Source of the DNA: Leucobacter sp. wl10
Lineage (GTDB): Bacteria; Actinomycetota; Actinomycetes; Actinomycetales; Microbacteriaceae
NCBI RefSeq assembly: GCF_003569785.1
Contig: NZ_KZ983990.1
Coordinates: 172,967 to 236,966, forward strand
Direction: 5' to 3'
DNA: 64,000 nucleotides
The position numbers were made by a program, and so were the translations under genes. Below the pieces are notes generated by a model, which was not told where the DNA came from, ran no database searches, and saw nothing but the letters and a program-made list of their open reading frames with translations. This document shows, piece after piece, positions 7,999 to 30,860 of this stretch. The stretch's first letter is position 1; each line of letters opens with the position of its first letter.

Positions 7999-8044
7999 GA
8001 TGTCTTACAATCACACAATATGCCCCGAAGAATGCCGCGCACAA
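7999..8044 (-). promoter_or_regulatory. Promoter with GntR-type operator for the FAD dehydrogenase
   Basis: Operator-like GATGTCTTACAAT (7999-8011) is a variant of the ATTGTCTGACAAT palindrome found across the island. On the minus strand a TATTGT -10 box lies at 8020-8015 with a weak TTGTGC -35 at 8044-8039 (18-nt spacer), so the operator sits at or just past the expected transcription start. Confidence 0.5.
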
Positions 8045-8100
8045 CAGCACCCTCCCACCAATCGGCGACAGGCATCGCCGCACCGCCGATCAGCGTTCAC

Positions 8101-9012
8101 TCAGCCCGCCTCGCACGATCCCTCGCCCACAGCGACGGCGCTCGCGAGCGCGTCGAGCACGGCGCGTATCGCGGGGCTCTGCTGCGAGCCGCTGCGATGA
8201 GCGGCGAACACGGTCCGCGTAGGCCGGCCCGGCAGTTCGACCTGCCGCAGCCGCGGGCGCTCGCTCTGGAGCAGCAGCCGCGGCAGCACGGCGATCGCAT
8301 GCCCCGTCTCGACCAGCCGCATCTGCACGAGCAGGTCGTCGGACTCGAACTGCACCACTGGCTCGAGCCCGAGGCTGCGGCACATGGCGATGCACCAGGC
8401 GCGGGCGTCGCTGCCCATCGGCTCCATAACCCACGGTAGGCGCGCGCCGATCTCGGTCACCGCGACACCGCCGTCGTAGCTCTCGGGTACGGCGAGCACC
8501 ATGGCGTCGTCGATGAGATGCACCAGCTCGATGCCCTCCTGGCGACTGACCGGCAAGCCGGCGTACTCCTCGCCCAGCACGATGTCGAACTCGCGTGCCG
8601 CGAGCGCACGCAGCGAACGCGACGGCTCGATGCGGCTCACGAGCATGCGCGGGTGCGGGTCATCGCGCTCGAGCAGCCGAAGCGCCCGGGGCAGCATCGC
8701 GAGCGATGCGGTCTGCAGCGCGGCGACTCGCACGTCTCCCCGCGCCACCGCACGCACCGCGGCGACCGCGGCCTCGGCCCGCTCGACCTCGGTGAAGATG
8801 GCAGCGGCGCACTCCGCGAGGGTCTCGCCCTCGCGGGTCAGGCGCAGGCCGCGGCCCACCCGCTCGGTGAGCTGCGCCCCGACCTCCTCCTCGAGCACCT
8901 TGAGCTGCTGGGAGACGGTGGAGGGACTGAAGGACAGGGTCTCGCTGACGGCGATGAGGGATCCGCGCCGCTGCAGTTCCTGCAGCAGCAGCAGACGGTT
9001 GAGATTGAGCAC
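8101..9012 (-). CDS. LysR-family transcriptional regulator
   Basis: 303 residues. An N-terminal winged helix-turn-helix (about residues 1-60, with SLIAVSETLSFSPSTVSQQL as recognition region) is followed by a two-lobed LysR effector domain. It is divergent from the operon starting at 9138 and the 125-nt space holds a perfect TGTTTA-n6-TAAACA palindrome, so it most likely controls that operon and itself. The inducer is unknown; LysR logic suggests a substrate or intermediate of the adjacent enzymes. Confidence 0.9.
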   Translation of the reverse strand: MLNLNRLLLLQELQRRGSLIAVSETLSFSPSTVSQQLKVLEEEVGAQLTERVGRGLRLTREGETLAECAAAIFTEVERAEAAVAAVRAVARGDVRVAALQTASLAMLPRALRLLERDDPHPRMLVSRIEPSRSLRALAAREFDIVLGEEYAGLPVSRQEGIELVHLIDDAMVLAVPESYDGGVAVTEIGARLPWVMEPMGSDARAWCIAMCRSLGLEPVVQFESDDLLVQMRLVETGHAIAVLPRLLLQSERPRLRQVELPGRPTRTVFAAHRSGSQQSPAIRAVLDALASAVAVGEGSCEAG

Positions 9013-9032
9013 ACCTCAGTCTAATCATTCGA

Positions 9033-9050
9033 TGTTTACGAATATAAACA
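9033..9050. promoter_or_regulatory. Candidate LysR binding site
   Basis: TGTTTA CGAATA TAAACA is a perfect 6+6+6 inverted repeat with T-N11-A character, centred between the divergent LysR gene (start 9012) and the cyclodeaminase-like gene (start 9138). It lies about 20 nt upstream of the LysR start, as expected for an autoregulatory and activating site. Confidence 0.55.
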
Positions 9051-9137
9051 CCGACAATAAATCGCTTGTGGCGAATGTAAGTGTTCGTCAGTGTGGACAG
9101 GAGAGCCCGACTCCCGAAGATATGACCGAGGTATCCG

Positions 9138-10307
9138 ATGCCCCCACGCTCACCGTTCCTCTTCCTCTCCGAGGCCGACATGGTCGCCGCGGGCGTCGAC
9201 GACGTCGCCCGTTCCGTCGACGTCGCCGACGAGGTGTTCCGCCTGCTCAAGCAGGGCGACTACGTCATGGGCGGCGTGAACCGCAACAGCCACGGCCTCG
9301 TGCTGGTCTTCCCCGAGACCTCGCCCTTCCCGAACATGCCCACCGCCGGCCCCGACCGCCGCGTCTCGGCGATGCCCGCGTACCTCGGCGGCCGCTTCGA
9401 CGTCTGCGGTGTGAAGTGGTACGGCTCGAACGCCGAGAACCGCAAGCGCGGCCTGCCCCGCTCCGTGCTCACCGTCATGCTCAACGACAAGTCGACCGGC
9501 GAGCCCCTCGCGCTCATGGCCGCGAACCGCCTCAGCTCCTCGCGCACCGCGGCCGTGCCCGCCGTCGCGAGCCGCTACCTGCCCGCCGAGCCCGCCCGCG
9601 TGCTGGCCGTGGTCGGCTGCGGCGAGATCAACCGGCAGGCCGTGCGCGCGATCCTGTCGCAGCAACCCGGCATCGAACGCATCGTCTGCAACAACCGCTC
9701 GCGCGAGAAGGCCGAGGCCTTCGCCGAGTGGCTGCGCGCCGAGTACGGCGTCGAAACCGCGGTCGCCGGCACCGCCCGCGAGTGCGTCGCCGAGGCCGAC
9801 ATCGTGACCGTCGCCGCCTCGCGCACCGCTCCGCTGCGCATCGAGGCCGACTGGTTCACCCCTCACGCCTGCATCCTGCTCAGCGGCCCCATGCAGTCGG
9901 ACGAGAAGATCTGGACCGAGAGCCGCGTCGTCTACGACCACGTACCGCTGCACGAGGCCTACGTGGCCGACGCGCGCCGCGCCGACGATGTCGACAAGGC
10001 CTACCTCGGCCAGATCGGCGGCTACATGTACCGGCTGATCGACGCCGGCAAGGCGCCCCCGCTCGCCGAGTCGGAGGACCTCGGCACGATCATGGCCGAG
10101 GAGCGCCCGCCGTCGCGCGGCCGCACCGTGTTCATCGCGAGCGGCATGGCCGTCTTCGACGTCGCCTGGGGCTTCGACCTGCTCGAGAGCGCGAAGCAGA
10201 AGGGACTCGGCGTCGAGCTCGAGCTCTGGGGCTTCGACGAGGCCGAGGAGGGCGGGGGATCCCTCGCCGCAGACGAGACCGCCGCGGGCGAGGGAGCGGC
10301 CGCATGA
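9138..10307 (+). CDS. Ornithine cyclodeaminase / mu-crystallin family protein
   Basis: 389 residues. The NAD-binding core is clear (VLAVVGCGEINRQAVRAIL), preceded by the family active-site region with Lys (CGVKWYGSNAENRKRG) and an Arg in NRLSSSRTAAVPAVASRYL. The long N-terminus and wording (LSEADMVAAGV) match the actinobacterial subgroup that automated pipelines often label tyramine oxidase subunit B. Family members reduce cyclic imines such as pyrroline-2-carboxylate or deaminate amino acids. The stop overlaps the next ATG (ATGA at 10304), so it is translationally coupled to the glycerate kinase; the last 20 or so residues are a low-complexity Gly/Ala/Glu tail. Confidence 0.88.
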   Translation: MPPRSPFLFLSEADMVAAGVDDVARSVDVADEVFRLLKQGDYVMGGVNRNSHGLVLVFPETSPFPNMPTAGPDRRVSAMPAYLGGRFDVCGVKWYGSNAENRKRGLPRSVLTVMLNDKSTGEPLALMAANRLSSSRTAAVPAVASRYLPAEPARVLAVVGCGEINRQAVRAILSQQPGIERIVCNNRSREKAEAFAEWLRAEYGVETAVAGTARECVAEADIVTVAASRTAPLRIEADWFTPHACILLSGPMQSDEKIWTESRVVYDHVPLHEAYVADARRADDVDKAYLGQIGGYMYRLIDAGKAPPLAESEDLGTIMAEERPPSRGRTVFIASGMAVFDVAWGFDLLESAKQKGLGVELELWGFDEAEEGGGSLAADETAAGEGAAA

Positions 10308-11716
10308 AGATCAAGAACTACGACGCGCTCGTCGGAGTCGGCGACCGCGCCTCGCGCGAACTCGTGCTCGGCATCGTCGACGACGCCCTGAACCGGGTCG
10401 ACGGCTACCGGCGCGTCAGCGGGATCGTGCGGGTCGAGGGAGACATCCTGCACATCGGCAACCGCCGATGGAATCTGGCCGACAAGAAGAACGTCTACCT
10501 CATCGGCGCCGGCAAGGCCTGCAATGCCATGGTCATGGCCATCGACCGCGCGCTCGGCGAGCGCCTGACCCGCGGCATCGCCGTCGTGAAGATCGCGGAG
10601 CGCACCGACGAGTTCTCCGACCGCACCGAGGTCTACGTCGGCGGACACCCCCTCCCGAACCGGGCCGGCTACCGGGCCTCGCAGCGGGTGCTCGAGCTCG
10701 TCGACCAGGCCGGCCCCGACGATCTCTTCATCATCGCGGTGAGCGGCGGCAGTTCGGCCCTGCTGAACGCCCCGATCGAGCCCATCACAGTCGAGGACGA
10801 GGCCGCCGCCACCGAGGTGCTGCTCACCTCGGGCCTCGACATCTACGAAGTCAACGCCGTGCGCCGCCACATCTCGCGCACGAACGGAGGCCGCCTCGCG
10901 GAGCGCATCCGCGACCGCGGCGCGGAGCTCATCGGCATCGGCATCTCCGACGCCGTGGGCAAGCCGCCGACAGGCGACATCTGCGAGCCCGACCCCCACT
11001 ACGCGAGCACGCCCATCGGCCCGGATCCCACGACCCTCGACGACGCGCGCGCCGCGATCGACGGCCACGGCCTGCGCGACCGCCTACCGAGGAGCATCAT
11101 CGATTTCCTGGACGACGCCGGCCCCGAGCAGGAGACGCCGAAGGCGTTCCCCGAGAACACCTACTTCGTGATCAACACGCTGCCCGATCTCGCCGAGGCC
11201 GCGGCTGCGGCTGCCGAGACGCGCGGCGTGACCGCGCACATCCTCACCACCTTCCTCGAGGGAGAGAGCCGCGACGCCGGCACCTTCATGGCCGCCCTCG
11301 CCCGCGAGGTGCAGACCAGCGGTCGCCCCTTCCGGGCGCCGTGCGTCATCGTCAGCGGCGGCGAGACGGTCACCCGCATTCGCCCCGGCACCGTGATCAC
11401 CGGTCACGGCGGCCCCTCGCAGGAGCTCGCGCTGAGCTTCGCGCTCGCGGCGGCGGCGGCGCCCGGCGCCTGCATGTACGGCATGGACTCCGAGGGCACC
11501 GACGGGACCTCCTCGGCGGCGGGCGGCATCACCGACTCGACGTCGGCGGCCCGTGCGGCCGAGGCCGGCGTCGACATCCTCGCCCACTTGCGCGGCCACG
11601 CCAGCTTCGAGGCACTGGAGGCCATGGGCGACGTCGTGCTCACCGGCAACACCGGCACCAACCTCTGCGACCTCAACGTCCTCTACGTGCCGGCCCAGAA
11701 CGGAGGGGGCTCATGA
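10304..11716 (+). CDS. Glycerate 2-kinase, DUF4147/MOFRL family
   Basis: 470 residues. The N-terminal DUF4147 domain has YLIGAGKACNAM and the IIAVSGGSSALL block; the C-terminal MOFRL domain has GHGGPSQELALSFALAAA and the DGTSSAAGGITD motif. Family members phosphorylate D-glycerate at C2 or related hydroxy-acids. The start ATG overlaps the preceding stop and its own stop overlaps the following ATG, so this is the middle of a tightly coupled three-gene operon. With a true enolase next door 2-phosphoglycerate would become PEP, but that neighbour has an altered active site, so another hydroxy-acid may be the real substrate. Confidence 0.88.
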   Translation: MKIKNYDALVGVGDRASRELVLGIVDDALNRVDGYRRVSGIVRVEGDILHIGNRRWNLADKKNVYLIGAGKACNAMVMAIDRALGERLTRGIAVVKIAERTDEFSDRTEVYVGGHPLPNRAGYRASQRVLELVDQAGPDDLFIIAVSGGSSALLNAPIEPITVEDEAAATEVLLTSGLDIYEVNAVRRHISRTNGGRLAERIRDRGAELIGIGISDAVGKPPTGDICEPDPHYASTPIGPDPTTLDDARAAIDGHGLRDRLPRSIIDFLDDAGPEQETPKAFPENTYFVINTLPDLAEAAAAAAETRGVTAHILTTFLEGESRDAGTFMAALAREVQTSGRPFRAPCVIVSGGETVTRIRPGTVITGHGGPSQELALSFALAAAAAPGACMYGMDSEGTDGTSSAAGGITDSTSAARAAEAGVDILAHLRGHASFEALEAMGDVVLTGNTGTNLCDLNVLYVPAQNGGGS

Positions 11717-13575: not shown

Positions 13576-14958
13576 TCACTCCGCGACGAAGAAGAACCGC
13601 CGGTTCGAGAACTCCCCGATGCCCAGCGGGCCCATCTCGCGACCGAAGCCCGAGCGCTTCACACCGCCGAAGGGCAGCTCGGCCGACTCCGCCGCGATGA
13701 TGTTCACGTGGCTCATGCCGGCGTCGATCTTCGACGCGATCTTCTTCGCACGCGCCTCATCAGCCGCGAACACCGAAGCACCCAGGCCGAAATCGCAGTC
13801 GTTGGCCAGCGCCAGCGCCTCTTCGTCGCTCGACACCTTGTAGACCACCGCCACCGGGCCGAAGATCTCCTCGCGAGCCGACGCCGAATCCGTCGGGATG
13901 CCCGTCAGCACGGTCGGCGAGTAATAGGCCGTCTCGCCCTCCCCCAGCACGCCACCGGCCTCGATCTTCGCACCCGCGGCGACCGCGCGCTGCACCTGCT
14001 CGTGCACGCCCTCGGCCGCGGCACGGCTCGACAGCGGCACGTACTCGTTCTCGCCCAGGTCCAGCGGGTCGCCCGGCCTGAGTCCCTCGGCCTGCTTCTT
14101 CAGCTCCGCCACGAACTCGTCGTAGATGTCGGCCATGACGATCATGCGCTTGTTGCCGTTGCACACCTGACCGCAGTTGTACGTGCGGAAGTCCCAGCCG
14201 TCCTTCGCGACCGCTGCGACGTCCTCGACATCGTCGAGCACGACCATGGGGTCGAGACCGCCCAGCTCGAGCACGGCCTTCTTCAGGTGACGGCCTGCCT
14301 GCTCTCCGATGATCGAGCCGGCGCGCTCTGAACCGGTCAGGGACACGCCCTGCACGCGGGGGTCGGCGATGACGGTCGCGATCTGATCGTGCGACGCGAA
14401 CAGAGCCTGATAGCCACCCTCGGGAACACCCGCGTCGCGGAAGATCTGCTCCACCGCCAGTGCCGACTTCGGGCAGATATCGGCGTGCTTGAGCAGGATC
14501 GTGTTGCCCAGCAGCAGGTTCGGGGCCGCGAAGCGGGCGACCTGGTAGTAGGGGAAGTTCCACGGCATGATCCCGAGCAGCGCACCCACGGGCAGGTGCT
14601 CGACGAACGCCTTGCCCGGCACGGTGCTCGGGATCTCGTAGTCGGCGACCAGCGACGGGCCGTGCACGGCGTAGTAGTCGACGATCGAGGCCGCGAACTC
14701 GACCTCCTCGCGCGACTCCTGCAGGCCTTTGCCCATCTCCACGGCGATGGTCTTCGCGAGCTCTTCCTTGCGCTCCTCGAAGAGTTCACCGGCGCGCTTC
14801 ACGACCGCGGCGCGCTCTTGCACGCTCCGCTCGAGCCACGAACGATACGCCGCATCGGCACTCGCGAGGGCCTGCTCGATCTGCTCGTCGGTCTGCGCTT
14901 CGAAGGTCTCGAGAATCTCGCCCGTGGCGGGGTTCTGAACGCGGTACCTGCTGGACAT
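13576..14958 (-). CDS. NAD(P)-dependent aldehyde dehydrogenase, succinate-semialdehyde type (paralog 2)
   Basis: 460 residues, complete ALDH fold with MPWNFPYYQ, the Glu in LELGGLDPMV and the nucleophile Cys in CGQVCNGNKR. It is strikingly similar to the protein at 5133-6509 along its whole length, so the two are recent paralogs. It is the second gene of a minus-strand unit whose first gene is the small SDR (108-nt gap), and hence is probably under the operator at 15675. Likely substrate: a C4-C5 oxo-acid semialdehyde such as succinate or alpha-ketoglutarate semialdehyde; which of the two paralogs does what is not evident. Confidence 0.9.
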   Translation of the reverse strand: MSSRYRVQNPATGEILETFEAQTDEQIEQALASADAAYRSWLERSVQERAAVVKRAGELFEERKEELAKTIAVEMGKGLQESREEVEFAASIVDYYAVHGPSLVADYEIPSTVPGKAFVEHLPVGALLGIMPWNFPYYQVARFAAPNLLLGNTILLKHADICPKSALAVEQIFRDAGVPEGGYQALFASHDQIATVIADPRVQGVSLTGSERAGSIIGEQAGRHLKKAVLELGGLDPMVVLDDVEDVAAVAKDGWDFRTYNCGQVCNGNKRMIVMADIYDEFVAELKKQAEGLRPGDPLDLGENEYVPLSSRAAAEGVHEQVQRAVAAGAKIEAGGVLGEGETAYYSPTVLTGIPTDSASAREEIFGPVAVVYKVSSDEEALALANDCDFGLGASVFAADEARAKKIASKIDAGMSHVNIIAAESAELPFGGVKRSGFGREMGPLGIGEFSNRRFFFVAE

Positions 14959-15663: not shown

Positions 15664-15674
15664 GCTTCCGCTCC

Positions 15675-15687
15675 TTGCCTGACAATC
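15675..15687 (-). promoter_or_regulatory. GntR-type operator before the small SDR
   Basis: On the minus strand ATTGTCAGGCAA, one substitution away from the palindrome ATTGTCAGACAAT at each of two positions. It lies between a possible TATCGT -10 box and the AAGGAG ribosome site of the gene starting at 15663. Confidence 0.55.
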
Positions 15688-15914: not shown

Positions 15915-16820
15915 ATGACGTATCCCGAACTCAAGGGCATTCTCGCCGCTGTCGTCACTCCATTCGACGCCGACGGCAAGGTCGACTTCGCCGGGATCGA
16001 GCGCCAGGCCGAGTTCATTATCGGCAACGGCGTGCACGGCGTCGTCTCGGCCGGCAGCACGGGCGAGTTCGCCACCCTTTCCGTGGATGAGCAGAAGGCC
16101 GTCAACAAGGCCTACATCGAGGCGGCGCACGCCCACGGCGGTCTCGCGGTCGCCGGTACCGGCGCGCTCTCGACCGCCGAGGCGATCGAGCTCACCGCCG
16201 CCGCGAAGGAGGACGGCGCCGACGCCGTGATGATCGTCCCGCCGTTCTACGACGCGCTGAGCTTCGATGAGCTGCTCGCCCACTACAAGGCGATCTCCGA
16301 GGCCGTCGATATCCAGATCATGTACTACAACATGCCGGGCGTCACGGGCGTCGACCTCACCCCCGACCAGTTCGCGCGGCTGGGTCGGGAGACCAACGTC
16401 ACCTGCTTCAAGGACACCGGCGGCGACAACACCAAGATGGCCACGATCCTGTTCGAGCACGACGACGACATCAAGGCGTTCAACGGCTGGGACACCTACA
16501 CGTTCCAGGGCCTTGCGCTCGGCGCAGAGGCCGGCGTCTGGGGCGGCGCAAGCTTCATGCCCGCCCTCGCCGCCGAGCTCTACCAGGCGGTAGCGGTCGA
16601 GAAGGATCTCGTGCGCGGCCGCGAGCTGTGGGAGCGCATCAACCCGATCTGCGTGTGGCTCGAGGAGCCGAACTACGCGGCCGCCATCAAGGCCGGCGTC
16701 TCGCTCGCGGGCGTCGATGCGGGCAGCACCCGCCCCCCGATCCAGCCCGTCGGCCAGGAGCAGCGCGATGAGCTCGCGGCCCTGCTGCGGGAGGCCGGCG
16801 TCGAGGTCAAAGGCCAGTAG
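15915..16820 (+). CDS. DapA/NAL-family lyase or deaminase
   Basis: 301 residues, full TIM barrel of the dihydrodipicolinate synthase family. Seen: AGSTGEFATLS (phosphate or carboxylate loop), Tyr138 in YYNMPG and the Schiff-base Lys166 in CFKDTGGD. Family knowledge: relatives act as pyruvate-dependent aldolases, as 2-keto-3-deoxy-pentonate dehydratases and as pyrroline-4-hydroxy-2-carboxylate deaminase in hydroxyproline degradation. The next gene, 9 nt downstream, is a proline-racemase-superfamily member, and a DadA-like enzyme and semialdehyde dehydrogenases lie in the same regulon, which favours the deaminase role. Not the housekeeping lysine-pathway enzyme, judging by context. Confidence 0.85.
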   Translation: MTYPELKGILAAVVTPFDADGKVDFAGIERQAEFIIGNGVHGVVSAGSTGEFATLSVDEQKAVNKAYIEAAHAHGGLAVAGTGALSTAEAIELTAAAKEDGADAVMIVPPFYDALSFDELLAHYKAISEAVDIQIMYYNMPGVTGVDLTPDQFARLGRETNVTCFKDTGGDNTKMATILFEHDDDIKAFNGWDTYTFQGLALGAEAGVWGGASFMPALAAELYQAVAVEKDLVRGRELWERINPICVWLEEPNYAAAIKAGVSLAGVDAGSTRPPIQPVGQEQRDELAALLREAGVEVKGQ

Positions 16821-16829: not shown

Positions 16830-17888
16830 ATGGCACGAAAGATCATCCACGCCATCGACGTCCACGCGGCCGGTGAAGCCGGCCGCGTGGTCGTGGGCGG
16901 TGACATGTTCGTTCGCGGCACGACCATGCAGGAGCGGCTCGTCTACTGCCAGGAGCACCTCGACGACTTCCGCCGGCTGCTGCTGCAGGAGCCCCGCGGC
17001 TACCCCTGCCTCTGCGGGGTCATAGTCACCTCGCCGGTGAACCCCGACAGCGATTTCGGCATCATCGTGTTCGAGCACGGCGGTTTCCGCCCGATGTCGG
17101 GCAGCAACACGATCTGCGCCGTCACGGCGCTCGTCGAGACCGGCCAGGTCCCGGTGGAGGAGCCGCTCACCCGGCTGCGCATGGACACCGCGACCGGGCT
17201 CGTCGAGCTCACCGTGAAGGTCGAGAACGGACGCGCCGTCGAGACCAGCATCGAGAATGTTCCCTCCTTCGCGATGGAGCTCGATCGCGAGTTCGATCTG
17301 CCCGAGTACGGCAAGGTGAAGGCCGACATCGTGTTCGGGGGCCAGTTCTACGTGCAGGCCCACGCCTCGCAGTTCGGTCTCGAGCTGAAGCCTGAGAACA
17401 CGAAGGCGATCATTCGCGCCGGCGCCCTGCTCCGCGAGGTCGCGCGGCGCGAATGCCCGGTGGTCCACCCCGAGCACCCCGAGGTCCGGGGCATCGCACT
17501 CGCGATGATCCACGGAGAGAGCGATACCGATGGGGCGGATGCGCGCAACGGCGTGATCTGCCCGAACGGTCCGGTCGATCCCGAGGATCCCGAGACCTGG
17601 ACGAGCACGCTCGACCGCTCACCGTGCGGCACCGGCACCTCGGGCCGCCTTGCGGCGAAGCACGCTCGAGGCGAGCTCGCCGTCGGCGAGGACTTCGTGC
17701 ACGAGAGCATGATCGGCTCGCTGTTCCGCGCCACCATCCGCGGGACCACGGAGGTCGGCGGCCGACCCGCGGTCCTGCCCACGATCGCGGGCCGCGGCTG
17801 GATCACCGGCATCCACGACTTCATCCTCGAGGACGACGACCCCTATTCCACCGGCTACCGCGTCGGTGACATCTGGGGCGCGGCCTGA
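16830..17888 (+). CDS. Proline racemase superfamily protein, Ser/Cys type (paralog 1)
   Basis: 352 residues with the two-lobed racemase fold. The two catalytic positions read Ser90 (PMSGSNTIC, where racemases have MCGHGT) and Cys266 (DRSPCGTGTSGRL). In this superfamily proteins with two Cys racemise or epimerise proline and 4-hydroxyproline, whereas members with one Cys replaced include trans-3-hydroxyproline dehydratases and some epimerases. Reaction: probably 2-epimerisation or dehydration of a hydroxylated cyclic imino acid. It is operonic with the DapA-family gene 9 nt upstream; a paralog with the same Ser/Cys pair lies at 29696. Confidence 0.87.
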   Translation: MARKIIHAIDVHAAGEAGRVVVGGDMFVRGTTMQERLVYCQEHLDDFRRLLLQEPRGYPCLCGVIVTSPVNPDSDFGIIVFEHGGFRPMSGSNTICAVTALVETGQVPVEEPLTRLRMDTATGLVELTVKVENGRAVETSIENVPSFAMELDREFDLPEYGKVKADIVFGGQFYVQAHASQFGLELKPENTKAIIRAGALLREVARRECPVVHPEHPEVRGIALAMIHGESDTDGADARNGVICPNGPVDPEDPETWTSTLDRSPCGTGTSGRLAAKHARGELAVGEDFVHESMIGSLFRATIRGTTEVGGRPAVLPTIAGRGWITGIHDFILEDDDPYSTGYRVGDIWGAA

Positions 17889-18076: not shown

Positions 18077-18775
18077 ATGACGACGAGTAGTCGGTCGGCC
18101 AGTGTGGGCCAGGTCGCAGGTTTGTCACGCCGTGACGGCGCGATCCAGGAGATCCGCCGAGCGATCGTGCTGGGAACCCTGGTGCCCGGAGAGAAGATCA
18201 CCGAGGTCGGACTCGCCTCGCAGCTCGGCGTCAGCCGGCCCACGCTCCGCGAGGCGCTGAACCAGCTCGCTCGCGAGGGGCTCCTCGTACAGGAGCCCTA
18301 CCGCGGCATGCGCGTCGCCGAGCTCAGCGCCGGAGAGCATCTTGATCTCGCCCATACCCGCCACGCCGTCGACATGCTCGCGGTCGATTCGATCCTCGCC
18401 GTCCCCGACGGGCAGCGCATGGCCGCGCTCGACGAGTACTGGGAGGAGTTCGCCGCGGTCGAGAGGGATCCGGATCCCCTCATCCGCCACGAGGCGCACG
18501 TCGCCTTCCATCGCGGCATCTGGGAGGCCTCGGAGAACCAGGTGCTGCTGCGGCTGTGGCCGGTCATCGAGGCGCACATCACCATCGCGCTGGCGCAGGA
18601 TCAGGCGATCCGCTCGGATCCGAACCGCGCCCTCACCCAGCACCACGCGCTCATGGACGCGCTCCACAGCCGCGATCGCGACGCCGTCGATCGCGCCTTC
18701 CGAGAGCACACGATCCGCAGCGCGGAGGAGCTCCTCGAGATCATGGCCGCGCAGTCGACCGCGGTCGCCGTCTGA
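18077..18775 (+). CDS. GntR-family (FadR-type) transcriptional regulator 1
   Basis: 232 residues from ATG 18077 (a TTG 12 nt upstream is also in frame). The N-terminal winged helix carries the standard GntR pattern: IRRAIVLGTLVPGEKITE, then LASQLGVSRPTLREALNQLAREGLL. The all-helical FCD ligand domain follows, with the metal-site type Asp/His residues (HEAHVAFHRGIWEAS and a late ALTQHHALMDAL). It is the first candidate for the protein that binds the ATTGTCTGACAAT sites, one of which lies in its own promoter. It ends at a strong bidirectional terminator. Confidence 0.92.
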   Translation: MTTSSRSASVGQVAGLSRRDGAIQEIRRAIVLGTLVPGEKITEVGLASQLGVSRPTLREALNQLAREGLLVQEPYRGMRVAELSAGEHLDLAHTRHAVDMLAVDSILAVPDGQRMAALDEYWEEFAAVERDPDPLIRHEAHVAFHRGIWEASENQVLLRLWPVIEAHITIALAQDQAIRSDPNRALTQHHALMDALHSRDRDAVDRAFREHTIRSAEELLEIMAAQSTAVAV

Positions 18776-18845: not shown

Positions 18846-19601
18846 CTACCGCACGTAGTCGGCGCCCATGATGTCGAGCGTGGCGCCGGTCATGTGGCGC
18901 GCGCGGCCCGAGGCGAGAAACGCCACCGTCTCGGCCACGTCCTCGGGCGGCACGACCTCCCGCATCGGCAGCGCGGCCAGCCTCTCCGGGGGCATGTGCC
19001 CCGCGATCATCCGGGTCGCGACCATCGCGGGGGCGATCGAGTAGGCGAGCACGCCCTCGTGGGCGAACGCGCGCGCGACGCCCTTCATGAGGTTCTGCAG
19101 GCCGGCCTTCGCGACACCGTAGGCGAGGTGCTCCCCGTCGTCGCCGCGGAGCGAGGAGCGGCTCGCCATCGAGATGATCGCGCCCCCGCCCTGCTTCCGG
19201 AAGTCGAGCACGGCGCGGCGCGTGAGCCACGCTGCCTGGCGCAGGTTCAGATCCATGTTCGCGTCCCAGCCGGCGAGCCACTCCTCCTCCGGCTCGAGGC
19301 GGGAGTAGATCCACAGGCCGGCGTTGTTCACGAGCACGTCGATGCCGCCGAGCGCATCGGTTGCCGCGTCCCACAGACCGTCGGGTCCGCCCTCGGAGGT
19401 GAGATCGGCCTGGAGCGCGACCGAGCCCCGGTCGCCGCCCTGGGCGACGAGCGCCTGGGCCTGCTCGTCGCTCGAGCCGTAGTGGATCGCGAGTCGCGCG
19501 CCGTCGCGGTGCAGCTTGCGGCAGATTTCGGTGCCGATGCCGCCGGTCGCGCCGGTGACGAGGATGCGCTTGCCGACCAGCAGGCCCTCCGCCGCGCTCA
19601 C
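18846..19601 (-). CDS. Short-chain dehydrogenase/reductase
   Basis: 251 residues, classical SDR: TGATGGIGTEI cofactor motif, NNAG, a Ser in ISMASRSSLRG and the catalytic AYGVAKAG (Tyr-xxx-Lys). The C-terminus (GATLDIMGADYVR) closes the fold. The start overlaps the stop of the upstream SDR by 4 nt, so the pair is translationally coupled and driven from the operator-controlled promoter near 20480. It probably oxidises or reduces a hydroxyl/keto group on an intermediate; the substrate is unknown. Confidence 0.88.
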   Translation of the reverse strand: MSAAEGLLVGKRILVTGATGGIGTEICRKLHRDGARLAIHYGSSDEQAQALVAQGGDRGSVALQADLTSEGGPDGLWDAATDALGGIDVLVNNAGLWIYSRLEPEEEWLAGWDANMDLNLRQAAWLTRRAVLDFRKQGGGAIISMASRSSLRGDDGEHLAYGVAKAGLQNLMKGVARAFAHEGVLAYSIAPAMVATRMIAGHMPPERLAALPMREVVPPEDVAETVAFLASGRARHMTGATLDIMGADYVR

Positions 19602-20335
19602 GAGAACAGCCCGCCCGTGATCTCGACGGTACCGCCCGTCACGTAACTCGACTCGGGGCCGACGAGGTAGGACATCAGGGCGGCGACGTCGGCCGGGCGG
19701 CCCACGCGCCCGATCGGGATGGGTTCTGCGAGTTGCTCTTCGGTGATGTTGTTGTCGCGCAGGCGCTTCTCGACCATGGGGGTGAGGATCTCGCCGGGGC
19801 AGACCGCGGTGACTCGGACGCCCTGCTTGCCGAAGTCGAGCGCGAGGCTCTTGCTCAGCGAGACGACAGCCGACTTCGATGCGTTGTAGGCGATGTGGCC
19901 GGGCGCCGGAATGAGGCCCCAGTTCGATGCGATGTTGGCAATCGAGCTCGTCTCGTTCTTCGTGAGCAGCGGCAGCGCCTCACGACAGGCGAAGTAGACG
20001 CCGGTCGTATTGACGCGGATGGTGTCGAACCAGTCCTCGTCGCTCAGGGCGAGCGCGTCGCCGCGGCGCATGATGCCGACGCAGTTGACGAGGGCGTTGA
20101 GGCTCTCGATGCGCCCGCCGAGCTCCTCGAACGCGGATCGGATCGCGAGGTGGTCTCCGAGGTCGACCACGACCTGCTCGATGCGGTCGCGGTTCCGATC
20201 ATCCTGCCAGGCGTCGTCTCGGAAGTGCAGGTCGAAGGCGAAGACTCGGAAACCGTCCGCGGCGAGCCGCGAGGCGACCTCGCTTCCGATTCCTCCGCCG
20301 GCCCCCGTGACGACCGCGGTCTTGGATTCGTTCAT
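19598..20335 (-). CDS. Short-chain dehydrogenase/reductase
   Basis: 245 residues, classical SDR: VTGAGGGIGSEVA, an Asp after strand 2 (FAFDLHF) suggesting NAD preference, NCVG, Ser in IASNWGLIPAPG and the AYNASKSA catalytic Tyr/Lys. First gene of a two-SDR unit; the second starts inside its stop codon region. The 5' region carries a good promoter and a GntR-type operator 118 nt upstream of the start. Confidence 0.88.
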   Translation of the reverse strand: MNESKTAVVTGAGGGIGSEVASRLAADGFRVFAFDLHFRDDAWQDDRNRDRIEQVVVDLGDHLAIRSAFEELGGRIESLNALVNCVGIMRRGDALALSDEDWFDTIRVNTTGVYFACREALPLLTKNETSSIANIASNWGLIPAPGHIAYNASKSAVVSLSKSLALDFGKQGVRVTAVCPGEILTPMVEKRLRDNNITEEQLAEPIPIGRVGRPADVAALMSYLVGPESSYVTGGTVEITGGLFS

Positions 20336-20452: not shown

Positions 20453-20509
20453 GTTGTCTGACAATCTGCCTTTGCGGCGACAGTACACCAGCGCCAAGAG
20501 GCTCGTCAA
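20453..20509 (-). promoter_or_regulatory. Promoter and operator of the two-SDR operon
   Basis: Reading the minus strand: TTGACG (20509-20504), 18-nt spacer, TACTGT (20485-20480), then the operator GTTGTCTGACAAT (plus-strand 20453-20465) just past the expected start site. The arrangement matches those at 15792 and 30805. Confidence 0.6.
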
Positions 20510-20730: not shown

Positions 20731-20743
20731 ATTGCCAGACAAA
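20731..20743 (+). promoter_or_regulatory. GntR-type operator overlapping the ribosome site of the AroE-like gene
   Basis: ATTGCCAGACAAA differs from the palindrome at two positions and runs into the AAAGGAG ribosome site. Position and spacing mirror the site before the small SDR at 15675. Confidence 0.5.
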
Positions 20744-20754: not shown

Positions 20755-21624
20755 ATGGTCTCACCCGCGTTCCTCGTCGGCCTCGTCGGTACCGGCACCA
20801 TCCAGTCGCTCTCACCCGCACTGCACATGGCCGAGGGGCGGGCGCACGGACTCTCACACGTGTTCCGCCCCATCGACATCGCCGCTCTCGGCCTCGAGCT
20901 CGACCAGCTCCCCGAGATCCTGGACTGGTCCGAACGGCTGGGCTACAACGCGATGACCGTCACCCATCCCTGCAAGCAGCAGGTCATCGACTACCTCGAT
21001 CGCGTCGATCCGGTGGCCGCCGAGCTCGGTGCGGTGAACACCGTGGTCTACGCACCCGAGGGCCGCGTGGGCTACAACACCGACACGACCGGCTTCGAGC
21101 ACGCGTTCCGCGACGGCATGGGCGACGCGACGCTGCGCCGGGTGGTGCAGCTCGGCGCGGGCGGGGCCGGCACCGCGGTCGCCGACGCGCTCGTGCGACT
21201 CGGAGCCGAACAGCTCACGATCGTGGACATCGACGAGTACCGGTCGTCGTCCCTCGCCGCCGACCTGCGCGGACGGCGCGGGGCGAACGCGGTCTCGGCG
21301 CCGCACGCCGAACTGACGGCGCTGCTCGCCGAGGCCGACGGCGTGGTGCACTGCACGCCGCAGGGCATGCACGATCACCCCGGCGCACCCTTCGACACGG
21401 CGCTGCTGCGCTCCGATCTCTGGGTCGCCGACATCGTGTACCGCCCGCTCGAGACCGAGCTGCTGCGCGCCGCCCGCGCGACGGGCTGCACGACCCTCGC
21501 GGGCGGCCGCATGGCCGTCTATCAGGCCGTCGACGCGTTCCGCCTCATCACGGGCGTCGAGCCCGATGCCGAGCGCATGATGCGGCACTTCCGCGAGCTT
21601 GCGGCAGCGGAGGGCGTGGCCTAG
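20755..21624 (+). CDS. Shikimate/quinate dehydrogenase-like protein
   Basis: 289 residues, AroE fold. The substrate domain has SLSPALHMAEG and the catalytic Lys in MTVTHPCKQ, with the conserved Asp in NTDTTGFEHAF; the NAD(P) domain has LGAGGAGTAVADAL. The gene is isolated from other aromatic-biosynthesis genes but is preceded by an operator of the island, so a catabolic polyol/hydroxy-acid dehydrogenase role (as in quinate use) is more likely than housekeeping shikimate synthesis. An EPSP-synthase-like gene lies 5 kb downstream in the same island. The VDIDEYRSS stretch after strand 2 carries an Asp, favouring NAD. Confidence 0.85.
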   Translation: MVSPAFLVGLVGTGTIQSLSPALHMAEGRAHGLSHVFRPIDIAALGLELDQLPEILDWSERLGYNAMTVTHPCKQQVIDYLDRVDPVAAELGAVNTVVYAPEGRVGYNTDTTGFEHAFRDGMGDATLRRVVQLGAGGAGTAVADALVRLGAEQLTIVDIDEYRSSSLAADLRGRRGANAVSAPHAELTALLAEADGVVHCTPQGMHDHPGAPFDTALLRSDLWVADIVYRPLETELLRAARATGCTTLAGGRMAVYQAVDAFRLITGVEPDAERMMRHFRELAAAEGVA

Positions 21625-24440: not shown

Positions 24441-25517
24441 CTAGGCGCGGAAGGCGTCGAGGATCTCGGAGACCTCGTCGAAGGGACGGTCGAGGAACCA
24501 CTCGAGCTGAGCCCAGCCCTGCTGGGTGTTGCGCATGATGTACCCGACGTTCTCGGGGAAGAGCAACGCACGGCGGGTGGTGATGAGCGCGCGGGCTATC
24601 ACCCGCGCCATGACGAGGTGGGGAACGAGACTTAACTCGCGATCCGTGAGCGCCGCCAGTCGCAGGTACCCCCGCAGCAGATCCTTGCCCGCGGCGAAGG
24701 GATCATCCACCGGATGCCGGGCGAGATCTCGAGGCAGTTGATTCAGGAGAGCGGTCGAGACGTCGACGGCCACGGTGGTCGTGACGGAATCGCCGAAGTC
24801 GAAGACGCCGGTGAGGAACTCCTCGCGGCTCGGGTCACCGAGCAGGTTCGACTTGCTGAAGTCGTTGTGCAGGACTTGCATCCGCATTCCGTTCACCTCA
24901 GCCGAGATGTCGGCGAAACGCGCCAGGCCGGCGGCGAGCGCCGCACGCCTCCTCCTGTCCTGAACGAAAGCCAGCAAGGGGGTGAGTTCGAGCGCTCGGC
25001 GCGCGTCCCAGGCGAGGGGGCGGGTCGCGCAGGGATGAGCGAACGATTCGGTGGCGATGCGAAGCTTGGCGAGGGCCTCGCCCACGAGTTCGCGTTGCCG
25101 CGCATCCGTCTCCAGCTCGTCGAGAGTGGTGCCCGGGAGGTATTCGATGAGATGCACCTCCCGGTTCTGACCCGCTTCGTCCACGAGTGCGGTGACGGAT
25201 CGGCCGCTGAGGTCAGCGCGGAACCTCGGTATCGGGATCGACGGATCGGTATCGATCACGTGCTGATGCAGCTGGCGCACGAAATCGAGTTCTCCTCGAT
25301 CATCGCCCGGATTGGCCACCTTCATGACGAATCGCGGCATTCGATTGATGTCGACCCGGAAGGTGTCGTCTTTCTCGGTTGCGAGCCGCAAGACCTGCGC
25401 GTCCAATCCGTACACGTCACGAACGACCGCGCGCGCCTCACCGCTCCCCATCGAGACGTAGTCGCCCGTCAGGCCGCCCCCATCCATGAGGGCGGCTGCT
25501 GTCCTCGGTTCAGACAT
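24441..25517 (-). CDS. APH-family small-molecule kinase (hydroxylysine-kinase-like)
   Basis: 358 residues from the ATG at 25517; an ATG at 25526 is also in frame but lies directly on the AGAGG site. Kinase features: Lys in RFVMKVANP, the catalytic HNDFSKSNLL loop and metal-binding DFGDSV. Despite the fold name there is no reason to think of antibiotic resistance: the gene is first in a catabolic operon with a class III PLP enzyme and an acid-sugar dehydratase. By analogy with hydroxylysine kinase it may phosphorylate a hydroxylated amino compound. Its promoter shares an operator with the divergent GntR gene. Confidence 0.82.
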   Translation of the reverse strand: MSEPRTAAALMDGGGLTGDYVSMGSGEARAVVRDVYGLDAQVLRLATEKDDTFRVDINRMPRFVMKVANPGDDRGELDFVRQLHQHVIDTDPSIPIPRFRADLSGRSVTALVDEAGQNREVHLIEYLPGTTLDELETDARQRELVGEALAKLRIATESFAHPCATRPLAWDARRALELTPLLAFVQDRRRRAALAAGLARFADISAEVNGMRMQVLHNDFSKSNLLGDPSREEFLTGVFDFGDSVTTTVAVDVSTALLNQLPRDLARHPVDDPFAAGKDLLRGYLRLAALTDRELSLVPHLVMARVIARALITTRRALLFPENVGYIMRNTQQGWAQLEWFLDRPFDEVSEILDAFRA

Positions 25518-25544
25518 CGGTGGCATCCTCTCGAGTTATGTCTG

Positions 25545-25581
25545 GTTGTCTGACAATAGCACGTTAGAAGGACACTGCCAA
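25545..25581 (-). promoter_or_regulatory. Promoter and operator in the kinase/GntR divergent region
   Basis: On the minus strand TTGGCA (25581-25576), 17-nt spacer, TATTGT (25558-25553). The -10 box is embedded in the operator GTTGTCTGACAAT (25545-25557), so a bound regulator would exclude polymerase from the kinase operon and possibly from the divergent GntR gene. Confidence 0.6.
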
Positions 25582-25654: not shown

Positions 25655-26359
25655 ATGCACGAAGACCTGCTGCCTCTCGAGCGCCTCTCGGTCGCAGATC
25701 GAGCCACGAACCGCCTGCGGGAGCATGTGCTGTCGGGTGCGATCGAAGCCGGTACGCGCCTCACCGAGCTGAGCCTCGCGGAGCGGTTGGGCATCGGTCG
25801 AGCCTCGGTGCGCGCCGCGCTCGTACAGCTCTCGTTCGAGGGCCTGGTGGTGAAGACTCCCTACACGGGATGGCACATCGCCGAGCTTTCATCGCGCTCG
25901 GTCTGGGAGACCTGGACGCTGCGGGCGAGCCTCGAGAGTCTCGCCGCGCGCATCATCGCGGAGAATCTCGACGGCCCCACGCGCGAGGCGATCACTGCGT
26001 CTCACCGAGCCTTCCACGAGGTCTGTCTGAACGGTCAGGTCGATGGCATCAGCGCCCGAGACTTCGAGTTCCATAAGCTGACGGTGGAGCTCTCGGGGCA
26101 TCAGCGCCTGCGCGAGCAGTACCGATTGGTCGAGAACCAGGTGAGACTGTTCATCATCACCAGCAACGCGCACGCCGCCGTAACCGGCGAAGAGGCCTTC
26201 GCGCAGCACGAGGCGCTTATGGCGGCGCTGTTCTCGGGAGACCCCGAGGTCGCGGCCCGCGAGGCGTGGCAGCACAGCCACAGCGCCGGCATACGCCTCT
26301 CCCGGTGGATCGAGCGGCGCGCTGTCGACGCGACTGAGCGCGACGAGACGAGCCGGTGA
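25655..26359 (+). CDS. GntR-family (FadR-type) transcriptional regulator 2
   Basis: 234 residues. Winged helix: ATNRLREHVLSGAIEAGTRLTE then LAERLGIGRASVRAALVQLSFEGLV; FCD domain with Asp/His pattern (ARDFEFHKLTVELSGH, then HEALMAALFSGD). It is divergent from the kinase operon with an island-type operator in the 137-nt gap, making it the second candidate for the regulon repressor. It precedes the EPSP-synthase-like gene by 55 nt on the same strand and may be co-transcribed with it. Confidence 0.92.
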   Translation: MHEDLLPLERLSVADRATNRLREHVLSGAIEAGTRLTELSLAERLGIGRASVRAALVQLSFEGLVVKTPYTGWHIAELSSRSVWETWTLRASLESLAARIIAENLDGPTREAITASHRAFHEVCLNGQVDGISARDFEFHKLTVELSGHQRLREQYRLVENQVRLFIITSNAHAAVTGEEAFAQHEALMAALFSGDPEVAAREAWQHSHSAGIRLSRWIERRAVDATERDETSR

Positions 26360-27762: not shown

Positions 27763-27802
27763 AAATTGCCGATTGGCGACAATCGCCCGCCTGCGGTACT
27801 GT
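27763..27802 (+). promoter_or_regulatory. Promoter and second-type operator of the dehydratase gene
   Basis: ATTGCCGATTGGCGACAAT (27765-27783) is a pseudo-palindrome (ATTGCCG, 5-nt spacer, CGACAAT). A TTGGCG -35 (27773-27778) lies within it and a TACTGT -10 (27797-27802) follows after 18 nt. The exact reverse complement of 27763-27783 recurs on the other side of the gene at 29608-29628. Confidence 0.6.
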
Positions 27803-29589: not shown

Positions 29590-29607
29590 CCGCCGCCCCG
29601 GGCCGCT

Positions 29608-29638
29608 ATTGTCGCCAATCGGCAATTTGTCTTACAAT
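29608..29638 (+). promoter_or_regulatory. Double operator/promoter before the second racemase-family gene
   Basis: 29608-29628 is the exact inverted copy of the dehydratase operator (core ATTGTCGCCAATCGGCAAT). It abuts the GntR-type operator variant TTTGTCTTACAAT (29626-29638), whose TACAAT can serve as -10, with TTGTCG at 29609 as -35 (18-nt spacer). So two different regulators may converge here. Confidence 0.55.
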
Positions 29639-29695
29639 CAGACGCAACAACCTCCCGGCGCGCTCGCGCCGACACCAGAGCAAAGGAGCCCGACC

Positions 29696-30748
29696 ATGCG
29701 ATCGAATCGCGTACTCAACGTCGTCAACGCCCACTGCGAGGGCGAGATCGGCAACGTCATCATCGGCGGCATCGGCCAGGTGCAGGGCGAGACGATGTTC
29801 GACAAGAAGCTCTGGTTCGAGGAGAACTACGATCAGGTCCGCGAGCTCATGCTCTTCGAGCCGCGCGCCGCGGTCTGGCACAACGTGAACGCCATCGTGC
29901 CCTCCAACAGCCCCGAGGCGGCGATGGGCTACATCATCCTCGAGACCACCGAGTACCCGGCGATGTCGGGGTCGAACACGATCTGCGTCGCCACGGTGCT
30001 GCTCGAGACCGGGATCCTGCCGATGACCGAGCCCGTCACCGAGCTCACCCTCGAGGCCCCGGTCGGGCTCGTCCGGTTGCGCTGCGAGTGCGAGAACGGC
30101 AAGGTGACGAAGGTCACCTTCACGAACCAGCCGGCCTTCTGCTACGCCCGCGACACGATGGTCGAGGTCGAGGGCATCGGCACCGTGCGAGTCGACGTCG
30201 CCTTCGGCGGCATGACCTTCGCCATGGTCGAGGCGCAGGATCTCGGCTTCTCCCTCAGCCCCGGCGAGGCGCGCGAACTCTGCGACGTGGGCGAGCGGAT
30301 CAAGCTCGCTACGGCCGAGCAGGTGCCCGTCGCCTACCCCGGCAATCCCGACATGCCGGGTATCACCAACTTCGAGTGGATGGGCCCGCTGCGTCGCGAC
30401 GCCGACGGCGACCTCGCCGCCAAGTGCACGGTCGTCGTCTCGCCCGGCCGCTGCGATCGCTCCCCCTGCGGCACCGGCACCTCGGCCCGCCTCGCCCTGT
30501 TGCACGCGCGCGGAGACATCGAGGTCGGCGAGAGCTTCACCCACGAGTCGATCACCGGCAGCACCTTCAGCGCTCAGATCGAGGGCACCGCGAAGGTCGG
30601 CCGGTACGACGCCGTCATCCCCCAGGTCGGCGGTCAGGCATGGATCACGGGCCTGAGCCAGATGACCCTCGACCCGACCGATCCCTATCCCCACGGCTTC
30701 ACGCTCAGCGACACCTGGTTCGGCATCGAGGCGGGTGCAAGGGGCTGA
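29696..30748 (+). CDS. Proline racemase superfamily protein, Ser/Cys type (paralog 2)
   Basis: 350 residues from ATG 29696 (AAAGGAG site). Catalytic positions are Ser91 (AMSGSNTIC) and Cys258 (DRSPCGTGTSARL), as in the paralog at 16830, but the two proteins are otherwise well diverged, so they likely act on different imino acids or catalyse different steps (epimerisation versus dehydration). It lies between the IlvD-like dehydratase and the amino-acid importer, and its promoter carries operators of both types seen in the island. Confidence 0.87.
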   Translation: MRSNRVLNVVNAHCEGEIGNVIIGGIGQVQGETMFDKKLWFEENYDQVRELMLFEPRAAVWHNVNAIVPSNSPEAAMGYIILETTEYPAMSGSNTICVATVLLETGILPMTEPVTELTLEAPVGLVRLRCECENGKVTKVTFTNQPAFCYARDTMVEVEGIGTVRVDVAFGGMTFAMVEAQDLGFSLSPGEARELCDVGERIKLATAEQVPVAYPGNPDMPGITNFEWMGPLRRDADGDLAAKCTVVVSPGRCDRSPCGTGTSARLALLHARGDIEVGESFTHESITGSTFSAQIEGTAKVGRYDAVIPQVGGQAWITGLSQMTLDPTDPYPHGFTLSDTWFGIEAGARG

Positions 30749-30804
30749 GAAGGCGCAGCAAGATTGCGGAACCGTCACAAACCGGACAACCAACATCTTG
30801 GGTG

Positions 30805-30860
30805 TGGACAGATGCCACAGAAGCTCATAGACTCTCGAAGCGACGAGAGTGTCTGACAAT
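30805..30860 (+). promoter_or_regulatory. Promoter and operator of the amino-acid importer operon
   Basis: TGGACA (30805-30810), 17-nt spacer, TAGACT (30828-30833); a small CTCTCG/CGAGAG inverted repeat follows, then the operator AGTGTCTGACAAT (30848-30860), 25 nt before the GTG start. Repressor binding would block elongation. Confidence 0.6.

What the first reader, a model, noticed from the sequence alone, without database searches (positions are those of the whole stretch)
7999..30860. One palindromic operator (ATTGTC-T-GACAAT) links at least eight transcription units
Seen directly: copies or close variants at 7999, 15675, 15833 (perfect), 18012, 20453, 20731, 25545, 29626 and 30848. At most of them a recognisable -10 box places the transcription start at or just before the motif. 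The units are a DadA-like oxidase, small SDR plus ALDH, DapA-like plus racemase, GntR1, two SDRs, AroE-like, kinase plus aminotransferase plus dehydratase, racemase 2 and the importer. Inference: one GntR/FadR-type repressor (18077 or 25655) controls the whole island, defining a single degradative system that gene order alone would not reveal.
Basis: partly seen in the sequence, partly recalled or inferred. Interest (0 to 1): 0.8.

Follow-up and report, generated by a model that had tools for sequence, protein, structure and literature searches.

The report
Nine gene switches, one likely repressor
In a Leucobacter genome, nine copies (seven close, two degenerate) of one DNA palindrome sit just in front of genes in a 23,000-base stretch; one regulator protein likely binds all nine and would keep off, until needed, enzymes and an importer predicted to break down hydroxyproline-like amino acids.

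Summary
All four sites within one mismatch of ATTGTCnGACAAT in the 3.8 Mb genome lie in this island, as do 7 of 13 within two.

The regulator is most likely GntR1 (18077-18775). Its relatives carry CnGATTGTCnGACAATCnG before island-gene homologues: 41 of 44 strong sites in 24 loci, against 1 site in 26 control loci. GntR2 has no close relative in 53 other Leucobacter genomes.

In five Leucobacter relatives the shared genes form one cluster with operators at two intergenic places; here they are spread over nine. Two related Paracoccus plasmids hold most of the operator-bearing families in one block, supporting one catabolic system: 4-hydroxyproline-like chemistry plus an unassigned kinase-phospholyase arm. 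'Controls the whole island' is too broad: several units lack an operator. Binding, repression, inducer and substrate are untested. New member of a known kind (HypR-like GntR/FCD regulons).

The parts
7999..8011 (.). operator copy, centre 53 bp upstream of DAO (6705-7952, -); follows a TATTGT -10-like box
   Evidence: (score 16.5); a Microbacterium relative has the same site-DAO link (L038)
15674..15686 (.). operator copy, 17 bp upstream of the small SDR (then ALDH_b)
   Evidence: (18.9); same link in Sinomonas humi L061
15833..15845 (.). perfect operator ATTGTCTGACAAT, 76 bp upstream of the DapA-like gene
   Evidence: (27.2); its reverse complement is the AlkR footprint in PMC12042122
18011..18029 (.). 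degenerate operator upstream of GntR1 (possible autoregulation)
   Evidence: 14.3; 16 of 25 GntR1-family genes in the relatives' loci have a strong site upstream
20453..20465 (.). operator, 124 bp upstream of SDR3-SDR2
   Evidence: (23.3)
20731..20743 (.). degenerate operator, 18 bp upstream of AroE-like
   Evidence: (14.3)
25545..25557 (.). operator overlapping the predicted -10 of the APH-AT3-MR_MLE unit (TTGGCA-17-TATTGT); also 104 bp upstream of GntR2
   Evidence: (21.6)
29626..29638 (.). operator, 64 bp upstream of racemase 2, overlapping a TACAAT box
   Evidence: (24.3)
30848..30860 (.). operator, 31 bp upstream of the importer unit
   Evidence: (23.2); SBP homologues have a strong site upstream in 11 of 11 relatives' loci where one was found
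18077..18775 (+). GntR1, GntR/FCD regulator, the proposed binder of all nine operators
   Evidence: PF00392+PF07729; orthologues and operator co-occurrence; model m836cc8db7d37, mean pLDDT 86
6705..7952 (-). DAO/DadA-like FAD oxidoreductase (predicted D-hydroxyproline oxidase)
   Evidence: PF01266; NF001933 below its cut-off
13576..14958 (-). ALDH_b (predicted semialdehyde dehydrogenase), 73% identical to ALDH_a 5133-6509
   Evidence: PF00171
15067..15663 (-). small SDR
15915..16820 (+). DapA-like (predicted pyrroline-4-hydroxy-2-carboxylate deaminase)
   Evidence: PF00701; CFK and YNMP motifs
16830..17888 (+). proline-racemase-family protein 1, Ser/Cys pair
   Evidence: PF05544, motifs
18846..20335 (-). 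SDR2 and SDR3
   Evidence: 39-42% homologues in the Paracoccus blocks
20755..21624 (+). AroE-like dehydrogenase
   Evidence: NF009201 above cut-off
24441..25526 (-). APH-family kinase (homologues named hydroxylysine kinase by some sources)
   Evidence: PF01636
23067..24410 (-). class III PLP enzyme (AT3) closest to phospholyase 5g4i and human ethanolamine-phosphate phospho-lyase 6tor
   Evidence: PF00202
21815..23008 (-). enolase-superfamily (MR_MLE) protein
   Evidence: PF13378
29696..30748 (+). proline-racemase-family protein 2, Ser/Cys pair
   Evidence: PF05544, motifs
30885..33341 (+). polar-amino-acid-type ABC importer (SBP, permease, ATPase)
33469..37072 (+). AP_endonuc_2-type protein, Ldh_2 dehydrogenase and EctB-like aminotransferase downstream of the importer
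   Evidence: membership of the importer's transcription unit is inferred

Best explanation
Nine copies of one palindrome stand in front of genes of this island, and the GntR/FCD regulator GntR1 (18077-18775) likely binds them all as a dimer and would repress nine transcription units that are predicted to form one catabolic system for hydroxyproline-like amino acids. Shown by calculation: the sites, their rarity elsewhere in the genome, their position 17-124 bp before start codons, and the conserved pairing of this operator with GntR1 relatives and with homologues of the same enzymes in other actinobacteria. Inferred: (1) GntR1 dimers sit over the -10/start region and block RNA polymerase; (2) an intermediate of the pathway, or hydroxyproline itself, releases them; (3) the core reactions are racemase-family epimerase, DAO oxidase, DapA-like deaminase and ALDH, i.e. 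trans-4-hydroxyproline to 2-oxoglutarate; (4) a kinase plus phospholyase plus MR_MLE unit and an AroE-like gene form an extra arm that came under the same operator. Its substrate is not known; a hydroxylated amino acid such as hydroxylysine is the leading guess.
For: Genome-wide concentration of the operator in the island. A motif learned without the window recovers exactly the nine sites (log-likelihood 183 against 29.0-32.9 in five base-shuffled sets, which were run with fewer restarts, 40 against 120). Five of six Leucobacter relatives with a GntR1 orthologue have a cluster (Ldh2, GntR1, SBP-permease-ATPase, DAO, DapA, racemase and, where the contig reaches, SDR3, SDR2, ALDH) with operators on both sides of GntR1 or of GntR1-small SDR. 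44 strong sites in 22 of 24 GntR1-relative loci (392 kb) against 1 in 26 control GntR loci (379 kb); 25 of the 44 lie outside the training stretches, in 17 loci; 41 of 44 are within 320 bp upstream of an island-gene homologue. GntR1's helix segment VSRPTxREALN is invariant in 7 of 7 orthologues, GntR2's differs (IGRASVRAALV). A different FCD repressor, AlkR, was footprinted on exactly ATTGTCAGACAAT over -10 regions (PMC12042122, passages read), and its structure 9isw fits the GntR1 model (TM 0.77). One-block gene sets on Paracoccus versutus and P. ferrooxidans plasmids (closely related to each other) support one system. Both racemases carry the Ser/Cys pair that PMC4113996 (passages) reports for a 4-hydroxyproline epimerase.
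Against: No binding or expression data. Three of nine sites (7999, 18012, 20731) score below the best peak of 60 simulated windows. Upstream of the 24 GntR1 relatives only 16 have a site of 17 or more; five are weak (12.4-15.4) and three (L049, L054, L057) have none. Leucobacter chromiisoli (G011) has GntR1 but neither cluster nor site. The AroE and APH units have an operator only in this genome among those examined. Of the NCBIfam families listed, no equivalog cut-off is reached by DAO, DapA, either racemase or either ALDH, so the hydroxyproline reading rests on the combination of families. In Paracoccus the regulator is a different GntR (27% identical) without this operator, and homology there is low for several genes (28-45%). 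The same 13-mer core serves AlkR, so the core sequence alone does not prove GntR1 binding.
Confidence: 0.77

Rival explanations
1. GntR2 (25655-26359), alone or together with GntR1, binds the operator; GntR1 merely sits in the cluster.
For: GntR2 is also a GntR/FCD protein and an operator lies 104 bp upstream of it. Its binding preference is unknown.
Against: No close GntR2 relative in 53 other Leucobacter genomes (best 36%), and GntR2 was never the best match in any of the 24 operator-region loci, which were chosen for GntR1 but carry the sites. The recognition segment differs. A second palindrome with two exact copies in the genome, both beside IlvD, offers GntR2 a possible target of its own.
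Confidence: 0.1
2. The regulon is real but is a patchwork: the kinase-phospholyase-MR_MLE and AroE units are metabolically unrelated to the hydroxyproline-type core and were captured by operator gain. (Compatible with GntR1 as the regulator.)
For: The kinase has no relative at E<=1e-55 in 395 other genomes of the order; 13 other genomes of the family have distant ones (32-38%); its best plasmid relatives are proteobacterial (45-47%). In Rhizobium, Sinorhizobium and one Thioclava plasmid the kinase-phospholyase pair occurs without racemase genes within about 10 kb.
Against: On two related Paracoccus plasmids kinase, phospholyase and AroE-like gene stand next to the importer-DapA-DAO-SDR-ALDH-racemase-SDR-SDR block, an association separate from the one in the window.
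Confidence: 0.3
3. GntR1 is an activator, or acts differently at different promoters.
For: Such proteins can do both depending on site position; deletion of S. coelicolor HypR lowered one promoter (PMC6608401, passages).
Against: Predicted -10 boxes (score 9 or more, no shuffled control) lie at or just upstream of the motif at five of nine sites, a blocking position.
Confidence: 0.12
4. The motif is a chance or promoter-composition effect (TATTGT-like -10 boxes).
For: At 3 mismatches the window count equals chance.
Confidence: 0.02

Closest known systems
HypR of Streptomyces coelicolor (SCO6294), L-hydroxyproline regulon
   Same: FadR-subfamily GntR with FCD domain, represses scattered promoters incl. 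its own; targets a DAO-type dehydrogenase, DapA-like deaminase and racemase-family epimerase (PMC6608401: abstract, passages and section 20 read)
   Different: Operator there is CTNTGC(A/C)ATGTCAC, not above chance here; three-subunit D-Hyp dehydrogenase there, one DAO gene here; collagenase and 2-oxoglutarate dehydrogenase/decarboxylase targets there, kinase-phospholyase and AroE here. The HypR protein sequence was not compared.
HypR regulons of Proteobacteria
   Same: GntR regulon for 4-hydroxyproline with epimerase, oxidase, deaminase, semialdehyde dehydrogenase, sometimes an ABC importer and ornithine cyclodeaminase (PMC5343134 passages)
   Different: HypR sites have 2 nt between GT and AC (PMC4494728 passages); here 3 nt
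AlkR/VanR of Pseudomonas aeruginosa
   Same: Footprint ATTGTCAGACAAT over -10 regions, FCD fold (PMC12042122 passages; 9isw)
   Different: Controls alkane monooxygenase, responds to acyl-CoA; 21% identical to GntR1 over the fold match
4-hydroxyproline epimerases and neighbours of the proline racemase superfamily
   Same: DAO, DapA-like, ALDH, OCD or Ldh_2 neighbours; Ser/Cys pair (PMC4113996 passages)
   Different: SDR, shikimate, aminotransferase and GntR do not occur in that main text (term search)
Arthrobacter-type phospholyase 5g4i (source organism recalled) and human ethanolamine-phosphate phospho-lyase 6tor
   Same: Best solved relatives of AT3 (23067-24410), 370 and 329 bits
   Different: Substrate of AT3 unknown

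Membership tests
GntR family, FadR/FCD subfamily (for GntR1) | N-terminal GntR winged helix and C-terminal FCD domain | tested here: met
   PF00392 60.6 bits, PF07729 54 bits, both above cut-off; fold matches to FCD regulators
GntR family, FadR/FCD subfamily (for GntR1) | palindromic operator with GT-N3-AC core (TKGT/ACMA) | tested here: met
   CnGATTGTCnGACAATCnG; consensus from PMC4494728 (passages)
GntR family, FadR/FCD subfamily (for GntR1) | direct DNA binding and ligand release | not testable with these tools
   needs EMSA
GntR family, FadR/FCD subfamily (for GntR1) | metal-ligand histidines of metal-binding FCD proteins | tested here: inconclusive
   His141, 145, 189, 211 invariant in 7 of 7; the ligand pattern is recalled, geometry not measured
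HypR-type hydroxyproline regulon | target genes epimerase, D-Hyp oxidase, deaminase, semialdehyde dehydrogenase | tested here: met
   by family and operator position only
HypR-type hydroxyproline regulon | operator of S. coelicolor HypR | tested here: not met
   13 matches at up to 3 mismatches in the window, 16.6 expected
HypR-type hydroxyproline regulon | 2-nt spacing of HypR sites in the set of PMC4494728 | tested here: not met
   3-nt spacing
HypR-type hydroxyproline regulon | induction by hydroxyproline | not testable with these tools
   no expression data
4-hydroxyproline 2-epimerase (ProR1, ProR2) | Ser/Cys catalytic pair rather than the Ser/Thr of a trans-3-hydroxyproline dehydratase | tested here: met
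   MSGSNT and DRSPCGTG in both; rule from PMC4113996, which also reports mixed activities in one cluster
4-hydroxyproline 2-epimerase (ProR1, ProR2) | NCBIfam equivalog cut-off | tested here: not met
   all listed scores below cut-off; ProR2 scores highest with a trans-3-hydroxyproline dehydratase model (416 of 550 needed), ProR1 with a proline racemase model (305 of 556)
hydroxylysine kinase / phospho-lyase pair (APH, AT3) | activity on hydroxylysine | not testable with these tools
   source names only; AT3 nearest to phospholyases incl. the ethanolamine-phosphate type

The most novel reading that the evidence does not exclude
GntR1 heads a collagen-residue regulon not met in the listings of paper searches: one repressor couples 4-hydroxyproline breakdown to a hydroxylysine kinase-phospholyase arm, and foreign genes joined it one by one by gaining operator copies, turning the compact cluster of Leucobacter relatives into a nine-operator dispersed regulon.
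Probability: 0.2. Interest if true: 0.68.

Novelty: new member of a known kind. Interest (0 to 1): 0.47.

Why it matters
It proposes a regulator and an operator for an amino-acid catabolic cluster found in many actinobacteria, shows one operator kept while gene order is reshuffled, and groups unassigned enzymes (two SDRs, AroE-like, kinase, phospholyase) with a partly known pathway, which makes their substrates directly testable.

Tried and rejected
Loose motif counts inside the window do not separate signal from chance and were replaced by genome-wide and cross-genome tests. The 3-mismatch genome scan is uninformative. The family-wide pattern scan found matches in 59 of 398 genomes; the window's genome has most places (5), yet only 2 of those 398 genomes, the own one included, carry GntR1 at E<=1e-40 (few Leucobacter were drawn), so I did not use it as a co-occurrence test. 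In the genus scan of the 11-mer 23 of 54 genomes have a match, and the reversed control is about as frequent outside the own genome, so lone 11-mers mean nothing. The same 13-mer core is used by AlkR, so lone matches elsewhere prove nothing about GntR1.

The six outside places at two mismatches were fetched and scored: 6.7-15.7, each overlapped by some long open frame, which says little at this G+C. The best (15.7) lies about 60 bp before an argH-like start and is not counted as a target. S. coelicolor HypR operator: not enriched. Collagenase PF01752: no match, but the 14 control genomes gave none either, so this is no proof of absence. A third half-site 8 bp downstream, seen in several sites, has its GAC in 16 of 88 flanks; not claimed. 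The listings of paper searches showed no report of this regulon in Micrococcales; the library holds open-licence papers only. One search, for the motif letters, listed 20 of 441 papers and gave AlkR. Structure search of the kinase in PDB sequences gave nothing useful.

Dropped rows: of the 12 of 54 Leucobacter genomes with a GntR1 match, the own one and six orthologues were kept; five genomes and a second hit in G011 at 30-37% identity were left out. Loci L062-L087 (22-49% identity, often over short segments, other phyla) served as controls. Six named Leucobacter loci (L052, L055, L056, L058, L059, L060) have the contig lengths of G046, G031, G043, G016, G011 and G052 and are not independent of them; L042 and L061 are both Sinomonas humi. 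One of the three strong sites without an island gene (L044, 17109) was not looked into.
Full report
1. What is there. Inside the window alone a 3-mismatch search cannot tell them from chance (8 found, 7.1 expected). In the whole 3.8 Mb draft genome the picture is clear: 4 of 4 places with 0-1 mismatch and 7 of 13 with up to 2 lie in this island, against 3 places for the reversed pattern genome-wide; with the longer TTGTCnGACAATCnGAC, 6 of 6 places at up to 2 mismatches lie here, while at 3 mismatches signal drowns (9 of 28 strand hits in the island, 26 control hits).

2. An independent test. GntR1 relatives were collected from named genomes (50 loci; 24 are clear relatives at 48-84% identity, L038-L061, one of them only over 76 residues). 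Expectation-maximisation on the 300 bp upstream of those 24 genes, with the window left out, gave the palindrome CnGATTGTCnGACAATCnG (log-likelihood 183; five base-shuffled sets 29.0-32.9, with fewer restarts). 16 of 24 upstream stretches hold a site of 17 or more, five a weak one (12.4-15.4), and L049, L054 and L057 none. Scanning the window with that matrix ranks the nine sites 1 to 9 (27.2 to 14.3); the best score in 60 simulated windows has mean 12.4 and maximum 18.4. Six sites exceed every control; 7999 has in addition a cross-genome link to DAO; 18012 and 20731 rest on rank and place.

3. Which regulator. At 17 or more there are 44 sites in the 24 loci (392 kb; 22 loci) and 1 in 26 control GntR loci (379 kb); 19 of the 44 are inside the training stretches and 25 outside. 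41 of 44 lie within 320 bp upstream of a homologue of an island gene, starts being estimated from tblastn: SBP 11 of 11, Ldh2 7 of 7, GntR1 family 16 of 25, DAO 8 of 19, small SDR 3 of 12, DapA 2 of 17, SDR3 1 of 8, ALDH_b 1 of 2, and none before ProR1 (0 of 16), ProR2 (0 of 3), SDR2 (0 of 8), ALDH_a (0 of 5), permease or ATPase (0 of 11 each). Of the three others, one precedes a sodium:alanine symporter gene (L040), one lies about 0.25 kb or more before a sodium:neurotransmitter-symporter-type gene (L045), and one (L044) was not examined. GntR2 has no close relative in the genus and was never the best match in these loci. I therefore assign the operator to GntR1.

4. Relatives' architecture. 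Six of 53 other Leucobacter genomes have a GntR1 orthologue (48-53%). In five, GntR1 lies between a divergent Ldh2 gene and importer-DAO-DapA-racemase genes, followed by SDR3, SDR2 and ALDH where the contig reaches (the order of ALDH varies), with operators on both sides of GntR1 or of GntR1-small SDR; the sixth, L. chromiisoli, has only GntR1 and an ALDH and no site. Sinomonas humi L061 (GntR1 84% over 76 residues, racemase 78%, ALDH_b 77%) and Microbacterium sp. 1.5R L038 (GntR1 79%) share the window's split arrangement of DAO, ALDH_b, DapA and GntR1. In the window the shared genes are spread over more promoters, each with its own operator.

5. One system? On plasmids of Paracoccus versutus and P. 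ferrooxidans (related plasmids, so one observation rather than two) one block holds kinase (45%), phospholyase-like AT3 (65%), AroE-like (40% over 192 aa), another GntR, an amino-acid importer, DapA-like (32%), DAO (28-29%), an SDR, ALDH (34%), racemase (40%), SDR2 (41-42%) and SDR3 (39-40%); MR_MLE is not there. P. pantotrophus has the second half, and beside it a racemase 74% identical to racemase 2 followed by an Ldh family gene. Rhizobium sp. NXC24 has glycerate kinase, enolase, OCD, AroE, DapA, racemase, DAO, ALDH, SDR2 and SDR3 homologues in 15 kb. The kinase is absent at E<=1e-55 from 395 other genomes of the order, with distant relatives (32-38%) in 13 of 397 other genomes of the family.

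6. Function. Racemase-family, DAO, DapA-like and ALDH genes are the known set for trans-4-hydroxyproline (PMC6608401 section 20, PMC4113996 passages). Both racemases carry Ser and Cys. Of the NCBIfam families listed, none of these genes passes an equivalog cut-off, so this is a prediction. AT3 resembles phospholyases, and several kinase homologues are called hydroxylysine kinase by their sources; the arm's substrate is open.

7. Mechanism. GntR1 is predicted to be a winged-helix/FCD protein. A repressor of related fold, AlkR, protects exactly ATTGTCAGACAAT over -10 regions (PMC12042122 passages). Here predicted -10 boxes (no shuffled control) are at or just before the motif at five of nine sites, with weaker ones at two more. 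Repression with release by a metabolite is the likely mode; it is not shown.

8. A second operator. ATTGCCGATTGGCGACAAT occurs exactly twice in the genome at up to the one mismatch searched in its arms (a third, one-mismatch place has other middle letters), at 27765 (before IlvD) and, reversed, at 29608 (beside the racemase 2 operator). It may belong to GntR2; untested.

9. Verdict. Observation confirmed; interpretation partly supported; new member of a known kind.

Noticed in passing
27765-27783 and 29608-29626: A second perfect palindrome, ATTGCCGATTGGCGACAAT and its reverse complement, two copies in the genome, flanking the IlvD/EDD gene; possible GntR2 operator and dual control of racemase 2.
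   Followed up: partly
13027-13440 (+): Decayed piece of an EctB-like aminotransferase, 71% and 67% identical to two parts of the intact copy at 35774-37072.
   Followed up: partly
26415-27668 (+): A further aroA-like gene (TIGR01356 above cut-off) just downstream of GntR2; the genome has three EPSP-synthase-family places.
   Followed up: partly
9138-12984 (+): OCD, DUF4147/MOFRL glycerate-kinase-type and enolase paralogue in a row without the operator; the same trio stands beside the racemase cluster in Rhizobium sp. NXC24 (L110) and Microbacterium sp. 1.5R (L038).
   Followed up: partly
L120 1051-1069 (G000 contig C8): Weak operator-like site (15.7) about 60 bp before an argH-like gene, named by eye from the translation.
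   Followed up: partly
L050, L051, L053: In Kineosporia and an actinomycete MAG a racemase-2-like gene (59%) directly follows GntR1, with the operator between DAO and GntR1.
   Followed up: no
L040 5056-5074; L045 1201-1219: Strong operator sites near sodium:alanine and sodium:neurotransmitter symporter genes, suggesting alternative importers in the regulon.
   Followed up: partly
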